Shown here piece by piece: positions 32,628 through 35,648 of a stretch of DNA of 64,000 nucleotides (the first letter of the stretch is position 1; each line of letters starts with the position of its first letter). The stretch spans positions 186,001 to 250,000 of the forward strand of contig JAPVXR010000004.1 of the NCBI GenBank assembly GCA_027214385.1. The letters run 5' to 3'. Source of the DNA: Cryomorphaceae bacterium 1068 (GTDB lineage: Bacteria > Bacteroidota > Bacteroidia > Flavobacteriales_D > Cryomorphaceae). The position numbers and the translations under genes were made by a program. Under the pieces are notes generated by a model. That model was not told the DNA's origin and did not search any database. It saw nothing but the letters and a program-made list of their open reading frames with translations.

Positions 32628-34016
32628 TCAAATTAAGCCAGCCATTAAAAGACCAAAGAGACAAGCAATCACTGAAGCGAGAAGGTTGGTTGTGCTGTTG
32701 TTTATCCGTGAGAAGCCACGGGTTGGATTTTCGTTTTTGTCTTTAGCGCTTTCGCGAATGGTACCATCCGGATTCGTGTATTTTGCTTGGAAGAGGTCTC
32801 CGATGAGGCTGTCGGTCAAATTCCCAATAACCCCAGCAGCACCTATAATCAAGCATTGCGTCAAGCTAAAATCGAACAGTGGCAAATAGGCAAGCGCAGC
32901 AGGAATAAAAGCAAAGATCATTCCCGCAAGAGAGCCGGAAAAGGTGATAGCGCCGCTAACACCTGCCGCAGTTTTCTTTCCATTCAGAATTTTGTAATGG
33001 TTTCCTCCCATTCGCACACCGATTTCAGAAGCAGAGGTATCACTCAAGGCAAAAGCAAACCCTGAAACACCTGCAATTAAGAAAACGGAATCGGCCCAAA
33101 TAAAGTACACCATGAAGCACACGGCAGGAATCAATCCATTGGCAAAGACTTGATCGGCATCTCTCACAGAGCCTTCATCCTTATATCCCGGAAGCTTTGA
33201 AAGCAGACTTCCAATCAAGAAAAACGCGGCTGGAAATACGATGATTTTAGGTTGGGAATTGACCACAAAAACCCAACCCAGAATGGCTGCCGCAAATGCC
33301 CCACCACAGGTCAACCATTTTCGCCGAAAGGCAAAAAATGCCAAAACAGGGATGACTAAAGAATAGTAGATTGAATCACCTACAGGGAGAATTAGAATCC
33401 AGTAAGCACAGGCCGCAGGAACCCATAGATTGTCAAAACTCCTTAGCGACAACGACTCCAGAATGGCGAGAAATACGGCCATAAAAAATGCTTGTTTCCA
33501 CTCGATGGATGGAATGAACTCGGGCAATAAGCGACTCCCAAATACCAAGACAACGAAAGTCACAACGGCAAAAGTCAAGGCTCCTTCCAGCGTTTTGCCT
33601 TCCGGCGAAAAATCCAGTTTACGCTTGCCAAAGCCATAGCCGACTACCGTGGCAAGCCCGTCTGACCATGCTAAGACCATCAGAGGAAAGTACACCAAAT
33701 GAGGCTGGTCAGCCCCAAAGAAATAGGTCAGTGCAAAAAAGGAAATGGCGAAATAAAGGATACCGTAACTCCTGCGCCCGGTCTCGTCATCTCTGAAAAA
33801 ACCCAGAAAAACGGCTGCTGCCAAAAGAGGGATAGCTAAACCGATGATCAGCAGTAGCTGTTCGATTTCAAGAAAATAAACCGAAAAAGCCGAGACTGAT
33901 ATTGCCCCAATGTGAAGTATCTTTCTCGCAAATACGGGATGAACAATTCCCGTGCGGCGAAAAACTTCGGCCACCAACACAAACAACAGCACTAAACCAG
34001 CGAGGAGAAAATCCAA
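32628..34016 (-). CDS. Phytol/polyprenol kinase-like domain fused to DUF92
   Basis: An integral membrane protein of about 462 residues with two joined parts. The N-terminal ~230 residues resemble the CTP-dependent phytol/dolichol kinase family (KILHIGAISVSAF, then WSDGLATVVGYGFGKRK, then GKTLEGALTFA), typified by plant VTE5. The C-terminal ~230 residues are a DUF92 domain (ALSDTSASEIGVRMGG, GNLTDSLIGDLFQAKYTN, RINNSTTNLLAS), the family of plant VTE6, a phytyl-phosphate kinase. Together the halves could phosphorylate a prenyl alcohol twice, giving the diphosphate used by UbiA-type enzymes. No ATG exists near the start; TTG 34016 is chosen and TTG 34040 is possible. It is divergent from a methyltransferase and the UbiA gene. 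Specificity is inferred. Confidence 0.82.
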   Translation of the reverse strand: MDFLLAGLVLLFVLVAEVFRRTGIVHPVFARKILHIGAISVSAFSVYFLEIEQLLLIIGLAIPLLAAAVFLGFFRDDETGRRSYGILYFAISFFALTYFFGADQPHLVYFPLMVLAWSDGLATVVGYGFGKRKLDFSPEGKTLEGALTFAVVTFVVLVFGSRLLPEFIPSIEWKQAFFMAVFLAILESLSLRSFDNLWVPAACAYWILILPVGDSIYYSLVIPVLAFFAFRRKWLTCGGAFAAAILGWVFVVNSQPKIIVFPAAFFLIGSLLSKLPGYKDEGSVRDADQVFANGLIPAVCFMVYFIWADSVFLIAGVSGFAFALSDTSASEIGVRMGGNHYKILNGKKTAAGVSGAITFSGSLAGMIFAFIPAALAYLPLFDFSLTQCLIIGAAGVIGNLTDSLIGDLFQAKYTNPDGTIRESAKDKNENPTRGFSRINNSTTNLLASVIACLFGLLMAGLI

Positions 34017-34026
34017 ATCAATTCTT

Positions 34027-34773
34027 TTGATCGACGTCAAAAATAAGAGAAAGAAGTGGCGACCACCCGAATTGGAAGATCAGACTTGGTTTCCCTCTTG
34101 GCTGCGCGCTTATCAAGTGGCTTTCTTATCGACTTTGGATCGAATCACTCAACTGTACTTACCCGTCAATAAACTCTTGGAAGAGCTTAGCCCTAATCGG
34201 ATTGTTGACTTGGCTTCTGGTTCAGGAGAGTCGGCAGTGAATGCGACGGCCACACTGAGAAAGACCGGGACTACTGTTCTGTTGACAGATAAATTCCCTT
34301 CCATCTCCGAAAGTTCAGATGACGGTCATGCGATTGTAGAATTGGATGTGCTCAAATCAGAATTGCCCGATGCAGACTTATACATCATGTTCAATGCATT
34401 CCATCATTTCGACAGCCAAGAGCGGGAATTGATTGCGAAGAAAGCGAGCCAAAACAACAGTCACCTTCTAATTATCGAACCACTTCGCCCTCGCGTCGAT
34501 GTATTTTTCAAGGTTTTTCTCGCAACTTTTATCGGCCCTTTTCTGTTGGCTCCCTTTATGCGACCCTTTTCACTCAAGTGGCTACTTTTGACTTACATAC
34601 TTCCTTTGGGAGTTTTGGCTACCATGTGGGATGGATTGGCCTCGGTGATAAAATCGCTCAGTCGTGAAGAGTGGGATGACTTGGAAAAAGGATTAACTCT
34701 CAGCGGTCGAACCGTGGAACAAGGTCTGCTAACTTCGCGAATGGCAAAACTCAAATACTTTTTGGTGAAATGA
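34027..34773 (+). CDS. SAM-dependent methyltransferase, membrane-associated
   Basis: A class I methyltransferase of about 248 residues. IVDLASGSGES is the SAM-binding motif I, and a later FNAFHHF stretch fits the end of strand 4 in this fold. The C-terminal half holds two hydrophobic segments (FFKVFLATFIGPFLLAPF and LKWLLLTYILPLGVLAT), so it probably works at the membrane on a lipid. There is no ATG; TTG 34027 avoids overlap with the divergent kinase, while GTG 33952 would run inside it. It overlaps the UbiA gene by 4 bp (ATGA). From context it may methylate a prenylated aromatic ring, as the methyltransferases of tocopherol and quinone synthesis do; this is inference. Confidence 0.78.
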   Translation: MIDVKNKRKKWRPPELEDQTWFPSWLRAYQVAFLSTLDRITQLYLPVNKLLEELSPNRIVDLASGSGESAVNATATLRKTGTTVLLTDKFPSISESSDDGHAIVELDVLKSELPDADLYIMFNAFHHFDSQERELIAKKASQNNSHLLIIEPLRPRVDVFFKVFLATFIGPFLLAPFMRPFSLKWLLLTYILPLGVLATMWDGLASVIKSLSREEWDDLEKGLTLSGRTVEQGLLTSRMAKLKYFLVK

Positions 34774-35648
34774 GGACCTTGAAAACGCTGTGGGAATTTA
34801 CAAGACCGCATACCATTGTTGGTTCTGCGGTGAGTGTAACCGCCCTCTACCTGATGGCCGTTCGCGAGTGGGAATTCAGCTTCCTGTTCCTTCTGAGCTT
34901 GGTTGCGGCGCTGCTCTGCAATGTGTTTATCACGGGGTACAATCAATTAGTTGACATCGATCTGGATCGCATCAACAAACCCGATCTTCCCCTTCCTGCG
35001 GGAAACCTCAGCGTTCAATCGGCGCAATTCATCGTTTTCGGATCGCTGATCGCCTCCTTGACTATTTCGGCATACGCCTCTTTTTTCCTCTTGGGCTTGG
35101 TGGCGCTCATCGCGGCTCTTGGGTTTATCTACTCTTGGAAAAGAGTCTACTTGAAACGTCGGCACCAAACCGCTGCTTTTGCCATTATCATCGTGCGAGG
35201 TGTTTTGATCAATCTAGGCTTTTATGTGCTCTACTCGGGTGGCTATGATTTCCCCGTTGAGGTCTGGACGCTCACGGTTTTCGTAGTTCTCTTTAGTGCG
35301 GGCATTGCCTGGTTCAAAGACATACCCGACATCGAAGGCGATGCGCAAATCGATATCGGCAGCCTGGCGATCAAGCAGGGCGCTGCCAAAACCTTTTCGG
35401 CGGGAGTTTGGCTATTGGGTTTTGCTTATTCAATCGGAGCCTTCGCTCCTCTTTTTTTCGATTTCCGAATTGGTTCAGGTTGGGTCGTCACCATCGGTCA
35501 TGCCCTTTTGGGAATCGCCTTTTTGAGCTTGGCTTCTAGGACGAACCCACTGGAAAAAAGGCAAATGAAACGGTTTTACCTCAGCTTTTGGGTTTTGTTT
35601 TTCTTGGAATATGTCCTTTGGGTAGGTGCGGTTTTCGCTAATCGTTAA
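34770..35648 (+). CDS. UbiA prenyltransferase, homogentisate-type
   Basis: A 292-residue membrane enzyme with about eight to nine helices. The first Asp motif is N58QLVDIDLDRINKP and continues LPAGNLS. The second is K183DIPDIEGD. The NQL-D-(I/D)-(D)-x-(I/V)NKP form and the KDIPD-EGD form are those of homogentisate phytyl/prenyl transferases (VTE2) rather than of UbiA, MenA or COX10. The enzyme would join a prenyl diphosphate to an aromatic acceptor, with loss of a carboxyl if homogentisate is used. It is translationally coupled to the methyltransferase and lies near the kinase/DUF92 fusion. The product could be a tocopherol-like or other prenylquinone; no cyclase is seen here. Confidence 0.87.
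   Translation: MRTLKTLWEFTRPHTIVGSAVSVTALYLMAVREWEFSFLFLLSLVAALLCNVFITGYNQLVDIDLDRINKPDLPLPAGNLSVQSAQFIVFGSLIASLTISAYASFFLLGLVALIAALGFIYSWKRVYLKRRHQTAAFAIIIVRGVLINLGFYVLYSGGYDFPVEVWTLTVFVVLFSAGIAWFKDIPDIEGDAQIDIGSLAIKQGAAKTFSAGVWLLGFAYSIGAFAPLFFDFRIGSGWVVTIGHALLGIAFLSLASRTNPLEKRQMKRFYLSFWVLFFLEYVLWVGAVFANR

What the first reader, a model, noticed from the sequence alone, without database searches (positions are those of the whole stretch)
32628..35648. Candidate tocopherol- or prenylquinone-like pathway in a Bacteroidota genome
A VTE5-like kinase domain is fused to a VTE6-like (DUF92) domain, beside a membrane methyltransferase and a UbiA enzyme with the homogentisate-prenyltransferase motifs NQLVDIDLDRINKP and KDIPDIEGD. 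In plants these activities convert phytol to phytyl diphosphate and attach it to homogentisate. A non-photosynthetic bacterium having them together suggests salvage of algal phytol, or an unknown prenylated antioxidant. Such fusions may already be noted in databases; I cannot check.
Basis: partly seen in the sequence, partly recalled or inferred. Interest (0 to 1): 0.75.

Follow-up and report, generated by a model that had tools for sequence, protein, structure and literature searches.

The report
Phytol-salvage prenylquinol gene cluster in Bacteroidota
A non-photosynthetic marine bacterium carries a compact gene set that most likely recycles phytol (the tail of algal chlorophyll) and attaches it to homogentisate to make a vitamin-E-like prenylquinol, chemistry that textbooks reserve for plants, algae and cyanobacteria.

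Summary
32628-34040(-) is a VTE5-type plus VTE6-type (DUF92) kinase fusion. It diverges from a translationally coupled pair: a methyltransferase (34027-34773) and a UbiA enzyme (34770-35648). The UbiA protein passes the curated cut-off for homogentisate phytyltransferase (HPT) and groups in a tree with cyanobacterial HPTs (99/99), apart from MenA, CtaB and other UbiAs. The genome has a homogentisate source (HPPD beside HmgA) but no tocopherol cyclase and no geranylgeranyl reductase above threshold. Fusion, methyltransferase and HPT co-occur far beyond chance (395 genomes; p=3e-14 and 4e-21, not corrected for kinship).

HPT loci in non-photosynthetic bacteria fall into two kinds. Saprospiraceae and Calditrichota carry HPT with reductase and cyclase: an apparent tocopherol pathway. 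The window's kind carries the kinase fusion and a distinct methyltransferase, never a cyclase (0 of 21).

Best reading: CTP-dependent salvage of phytol to phytyl-PP, coupling to homogentisate, then methylation, giving an open-chain phytyl-benzoquinol rather than tocopherol. HPT identity is well supported. Phytol as substrate is inferred (geranylgeraniol or farnesol not excluded), and the product is untested. I found no paper describing this in Bacteroidota, in a limited library.

The parts
32628..34040 (-). Fusion of a VTE5-type prenol kinase domain (residues ~1-225) and a VTE6/DUF92-type prenyl-phosphate kinase domain (residues ~229-470); start codon TTG
   Evidence: PF01940 E 2.6e-46; both halves match separate stand-alone cyanobacterial proteins with conserved motifs; AlphaFold pLDDT 90.7; N-half fold best matches CdsA
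34027..34773 (+). Class I SAM-dependent methyltransferase, putative phytyl-benzoquinol methyltransferase (TTG start inferred; overlaps fusion 5' end by 14 bp)
   Evidence: AlphaFold pLDDT 94.6, fold matches small-molecule O-methyltransferases E 4e-7; subfamily above 300 bits found only in HPT-positive genomes, 12 of 12
34770..35648 (+). UbiA-family homogentisate phytyltransferase (HPT/VTE2-type), ATGA-coupled to the methyltransferase
   Evidence: NCBIfam NF009525 244 bits over cut-off 226; tree clade with cyanobacterial HPT 99/99; Asp-rich motif residues invariant in 17 relatives

Best explanation
The three genes form a prenylquinol pathway fed by salvage. Step 1 (inferred from domain homology): the N-half of the fusion phosphorylates a free prenol, most likely phytol released from algal chlorophyll, with CTP, and the C-half phosphorylates the monophosphate to give phytyl diphosphate. 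Step 2 (family assignment shown, reaction inferred): the UbiA enzyme joins phytyl diphosphate to homogentisate, made by the cell's HPPD, with loss of CO2, giving 2-methyl-6-phytyl-1,4-benzoquinol or an isomer. Step 3 (inferred): the coupled methyltransferase methylates this quinol. Because no cyclase is found, the product stays an open-chain phytyl-benzoquinol/quinone, acting as a membrane antioxidant or accessory redox lipid beside menaquinone, rather than tocopherol.
For: HPT model over its curated cut-off and HPT clade in a tree that excludes the same genome's CtaB, MenA and GGGP-like UbiA and the other UbiA paralogues of two cyanobacteria. HPPD present, 453 bits, beside HmgA. Fusion x HPT: 9 of 10 genomes with a full-length fusion are HPT-positive against 14 of 395 overall. 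Methyltransferase subfamily: 12 of 12 HPT-positive. Divergent fusion / methyltransferase-HPT order conserved across many families. Geranylgeranyl reductase (TIGR02032) not found in this genome, and above cut-off in 4 of 21 HPT loci with fusion versus 10 of 17 without (p=0.018), as expected if salvage replaces reduction. Cyclase in 0 of 21 with fusion versus 8 of 17 without (p=5e-4). Residues invariant in the fusion are mostly kept in cyanobacterial VTE5 and VTE6 homologues.
Against: Substrate specificity of fusion and HPT cannot be read from sequence; phytol versus geranylgeraniol or farnesol is unresolved. HPPD is common in the class (344 of 395), so its presence is not diagnostic, and one HPT-positive genome (G093) lacks a match. 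One family member (G001) keeps the fusion at the syntenic place without methyltransferase and HPT, so the fusion can have another use. Several HPT-fusion loci lack the methyltransferase nearby. Two HPT-positive MAGs (G409, G410) have neither kinase nor reductase at threshold. The statistics are not corrected for phylogeny and many genomes are MAGs. No chemistry has been done.
Confidence: 0.58

Rival explanations
1. Same enzymes, but the prenol is geranylgeraniol, farnesol or another isoprenol (or HPT takes GGPP made de novo), giving a tocotrienol-like or plastoquinone-like quinol; the kinase fusion recycles prenols in general.
For: No sequence feature tested here fixes the chain. Two HPT-positive genomes have neither kinase nor reductase. 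G001 keeps the fusion without HPT nearby.
Against: The HPT model, the VTE5/VTE6 homology and the tendency of kinase fusion and geranylgeranyl reductase to occur in different genomes point to a saturated phytyl chain.
Confidence: 0.24
2. The UbiA enzyme uses a different aromatic acceptor, or makes a respiratory quinone (a relative of plastoquinone or methyl-plastoquinone).
For: Methyl-plastoquinones were found in non-phototrophic Nitrospira (PMC12324825), so benzoquinones outside phototrophs exist. HPPD is absent in one HPT-positive genome.
Against: Strong HPT-family score and clade. The genome has a MenA homologue in a menaquinone gene neighbourhood, so a respiratory quinone is already covered. 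Salvage gives a chain supply that depends on the diet, odd for an essential respiratory quinone (inference).
Confidence: 0.1
3. A complete tocopherol pathway with a cyclase too divergent to be recognised.
For: HPT relatives in Saprospiraceae and Calditrichota do carry recognisable PF14249 proteins, most with YxEKDWG motifs, so the pathway exists nearby.
Against: PF14249 found in none of 21 fusion-type HPT genomes, including this one, while the same search found it in 8 of 17 others.
Confidence: 0.06
4. Fusion and methyltransferase-HPT pair are neighbours without shared function.
For: G001 keeps the fusion alone; some HPT loci have the methyltransferase pair without fusion.
Against: Co-occurrence and conserved divergent order across distant families.
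Confidence: 0.04

Closest known systems
Plant/cyanobacterial homogentisate phytyltransferase (VTE2, NCBIfam NF009525)
   Same: Over the curated cut-off; Asp-rich motifs; one clade with cyanobacterial HPTs
   Different: 37-42% identity to cyanobacterial members; found in a non-photosynthetic bacterium and linked to a kinase fusion
Phytol kinase VTE5 and phytyl-phosphate kinase VTE6 (COG1836/DUF92; phytol-phosphate role predicted in PMC3223725)
   Same: Each half matches one stand-alone cyanobacterial homologue with the motifs largely kept
   Different: Fused in one chain; VTE6 half differs from cyanobacterial ones at otherwise invariant sites (Q297N, N301S, S362E)
Tocopherol biosynthesis (VTE1-VTE6)
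   Same: HPT, kinase functions, homogentisate source, a methyltransferase
   Different: No tocopherol cyclase and no geranylgeranyl reductase found in this genome; methyltransferase is of another family than the VTE4-like one beside cyanobacterial HPT
Methyl-plastoquinone of Nitrospirota
   Same: Benzoquinone-type lipid in non-phototrophs (PMC12324825)
   Different: HPT-type prenyltransferase with prenol salvage here; product untested

Membership tests
Homogentisate phytyltransferase (NF009525) | Score over curated cut-off (226 bits) | tested here: met
   244 bits; all 17 relatives match the model at E<=0.001
Homogentisate phytyltransferase (NF009525) | Groups with cyanobacterial HPT and not with MenA/ChlG/CtaB/UbiA | tested here: met
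   99/99 clade of 52 rows in a careful ML tree; long outgroup branches are a caveat
Homogentisate phytyltransferase (NF009525) | Prenylates homogentisate with phytyl-PP | not testable with these tools
   needs enzyme assay
VTE5 phytol kinase | Conserved motifs shared with stand-alone homologues | tested here: met
   11-13 of 13 invariant N-half residues kept in three homologues from two cyanobacterial genomes; these homologues are taken as VTE5 from general knowledge, not from a curated model
VTE5 phytol kinase | CTP-enzyme membrane fold (CdsA-like) | tested here: inconclusive
   CdsA ranks first, Z 9.2 over 159 residues, model 16-219, but Foldseek E is about 1
VTE6 phytyl-phosphate kinase | DUF92 domain | tested here: met
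   PF01940 158.5 bits over cut-off 27.5; all 13 relatives match
VTE6 phytyl-phosphate kinase | TIGR00297 curated cut-off | tested here: not met
   90.3 bits under 205.85; a narrower hypothetical-equivalog model
Tocopherol biosynthesis pathway | Tocopherol cyclase VTE1 (PF14249) | tested here: not met
   no match in the genome, rated 100% complete; control cyanobacterium 532 bits
Tocopherol biosynthesis pathway | Homogentisate source HPPD | tested here: met
   452.8 bits over cut-off 277
VTE4-like methyltransferase found next to cyanobacterial HPT | Same family as that methyltransferase | tested here: not met
   separate BLAST clusters, no NCBIfam match; MPBQ-methyltransferase activity itself untested

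The most novel reading that the evidence does not exclude
Non-photosynthetic Bacteroidota run two homogentisate-based prenylquinol pathways: one makes true tocopherol de novo (HPT with reductase and cyclase), the other, in the window, builds an undescribed phytyl-benzoquinol antioxidant from chlorophyll phytol taken from phytoplankton through a bifunctional CTP kinase.
Probability: 0.4. Interest if true: 0.8.

Novelty: new variant of a known kind. Interest (0 to 1): 0.64.

Why it matters
Reviews state that tocochromanols are made only by photosynthetic organisms (abstracts of PMC5745509 and PMC9515888). A heterotroph that turns algal phytol into a prenylquinol would link chlorophyll turnover in the sea to bacterial membrane protection, would put VTE5 and VTE6 activities in a single chain useful for enzymology and engineering, and makes the question directly testable in a cultured relative (Cryomorpha ignava carries the fusion, methyltransferase and HPT on one contig). 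The reductase/cyclase-type clusters suggest tocopherol synthesis itself outside phototrophs.

Tried and rejected
Tocopherol as product here: rejected for lack of PF14249. UbiA as MenA, CtaB, ChlG or GGGP synthase: rejected, these fall outside the HPT clade. HPPD as discriminating evidence: dropped, 87% of the class has it. Foldseek against PDB for the whole fusion gave no significant hit. Internal duplication of the two kinase halves: only a weak profile match around one motif (hhalign E 3e-4, probability 41%), not claimed. An early quick tree with very long outgroup branches was replaced by a careful one without the worst of them. Literature searches for Bacteroidota with tocopherol or homogentisate prenyltransferase found nothing; the key VTE6 paper is not held. 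Promoter and terminator scan was uninformative.

Full report
What is there. Three genes lie at 32628-35648 of the window, which is contig C4:186001-250000 of a 4.32 Mb genome rated 100% complete. The fusion gene is on the minus strand. The methyltransferase and UbiA genes run on the plus strand and overlap by the ATGA at 34770-34773, which suggests translational coupling. The methyltransferase start is probably TTG 34027, so the two divergent genes overlap by 14 bp at their 5' ends; the same-genus genome G004 shows a similar overlap.

The prenyltransferase. It scores 244 bits against the NCBI model for homogentisate phytyltransferase (cut-off 226), far above the next model (88 bits against a cut-off of 269). 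The genome has four UbiA proteins. The other three are a CtaB beside cytochrome oxidase genes, a MenA in a menaquinone neighbourhood, and a third, L004, that I call GGGP-like (these three names are read from context and tree, not from curated models). In a careful maximum-likelihood tree of 69 proteins, the window enzyme and cyanobacterial HPTs form one clade at 99/99. CtaB, MenA, the GGGP-like proteins and the other UbiA paralogues of two cyanobacteria, including the ones I take as ChlG, lie outside. Long outgroup branches are a caveat.

The kinase fusion. The C-half is DUF92/VTE6. The N-half has no Pfam match. In two cyanobacteria, Phormidesmis priestleyi and Calothrix sp. NIES-3974, each half finds its own stand-alone protein. 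The N-half partners keep 11 to 13 of the 13 residues invariant in the fusion family; the VTE6 partners differ at a few. The AlphaFold model is confident (pLDDT 90.7). Its N-half aligns over nearly its whole length with CdsA, a CTP-using membrane enzyme (Z 9.2), though such Z values need care for helical proteins. A role of COG1836/VTE6 in phytol-phosphate metabolism was predicted in 2011 (PMC3223725). I recall that VTE6 was later shown to be phytyl-phosphate kinase; the review PMC9782597 agrees.

The methyltransferase. It is a class I SAM enzyme without a curated family. Its model (pLDDT 94.6) matches small-molecule O-methyltransferases by fold, which does not settle C- versus O-methylation. 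Its subfamily is tight: matches over 300 bits occur in 12 of 395 class genomes, all 12 HPT-positive, while weaker paralogues (209 bits or less) occur in 22 others.

Linkage. In 395 genomes of the class, 14 have HPT and 10 a full-length (or contig-cut) fusion; 9 of these 10 are HPT-positive, Fisher p=3e-14. In the neighbourhoods the divergent order, fusion one way and methyltransferase-HPT the other, recurs across many families. Among 80 named loci, BLAST clusters of the methyltransferase and the fusion hold 40 and 32 loci, and no cyanobacterial locus has either. These counts are not corrected for kinship.

Two kinds of HPT locus outside phototrophs. I searched 40 genomes (HPT-positive ones plus G001, which has the fusion only) for tocopherol cyclase and geranylgeranyl reductase. 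Cyclase was found in the cyanobacterial control and in eight others: Saprospiraceae, two Calditrichota and G368. Seven of these eight also have the reductase over cut-off and the eighth a partial match. L122 (Saprospiraceae) carries reductase, two methyltransferases and HPT in a row; L120 (Calditrichaceae) carries cyclase, VTE4-like methyltransferase, HPT and reductase within about 7 kb. All but one of the eight cyclases have the motif YxEKDWG, close to the published YxEKNWG (PMC4963081). None of 21 genomes with the fusion at the HPT locus has the cyclase, and only 4 of 21 have the reductase over cut-off, against 8 and 10 of 17 without it (p=5e-4 and 0.018). The window genome has neither. Cyclase-like proteins occur in other heterotrophs too, so PF14249 alone is not proof of tocopherol.

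Mechanism. The simplest account is that phytol is phosphorylated twice with CTP by the fusion, coupled to homogentisate by HPT, and methylated. Homogentisate comes from HPPD, encoded beside HmgA as in tyrosine breakdown (HmgA named by eye); 344 of 395 class genomes have HPPD, so this is permissive, not diagnostic. Without a cyclase the product would be an open-chain phytyl-benzoquinol. Shown: gene identities at family level, linkage, absence of cyclase and reductase matches. Inferred: substrates, order, product and role.

Weak points. Phytol is not distinguished from other prenols. G001 has the fusion at the syntenic place but no methyltransferase or HPT there, and no HPT of it was recognised among the best 80 loci. 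Some fusion-HPT loci lack the methyltransferase. G409 and G410 show no chain supply at the thresholds used.

Known or new. Searches of the held papers found no report of this pathway in Bacteroidota; a 2026 survey of bacterial quinones covers ubiquinone, rhodoquinone, plastoquinone and menaquinone and does not mention homogentisate or tocopherol (PMC13386864). Menaquinone content of Cryomorpha ignava is given as unknown (PMC7214798). Most subscription papers are not held, and NCBI's own model would name such proteins homogentisate phytyltransferase, so parts may be known elsewhere. I rate it a new variant of a known kind.

Noticed in passing
L122:111-4153: Saprospiraceae MAG with a row of geranylgeranyl reductase, a VTE3-like (by eye) methyltransferase, a VTE4-like (by eye) methyltransferase and HPT; its genome also has a PF14249 cyclase: an apparent complete tocopherol pathway in a non-photosynthetic bacterium.
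   Followed up: partly
L120:3260-10151: Calditrichaceae MAG with cyclase, VTE4-like methyltransferase, HPT and geranylgeranyl reductase in one cluster; its genome also has a kinase fusion elsewhere.
   Followed up: partly
window:23821-32581: A 2227-aa repeat protein (SprB-like look), a PorP/SprF-like protein and a protein with a gliding-type C-terminal domain; this block is conserved next to the fusion gene in the family (clusters 4, 3, 5).
   Followed up: no
window:34027-34040: The divergent fusion and methyltransferase genes overlap at their 5' ends, both apparently with TTG starts, so each promoter must lie inside the other gene; wider relatives have gaps of about 60-200 bp.
   Followed up: partly
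L018:6348-10043: Genome G001 of the same family keeps the fusion at the syntenic place but lacks methyltransferase and HPT there, hinting at a second use for the kinase.
   Followed up: partly
L045/L046, L047, L037: Methyltransferase-HPT pairs without a kinase fusion; three of the four genomes have geranylgeranyl reductase over cut-off and the fourth a weak match, which fits de novo chain supply.
   Followed up: partly
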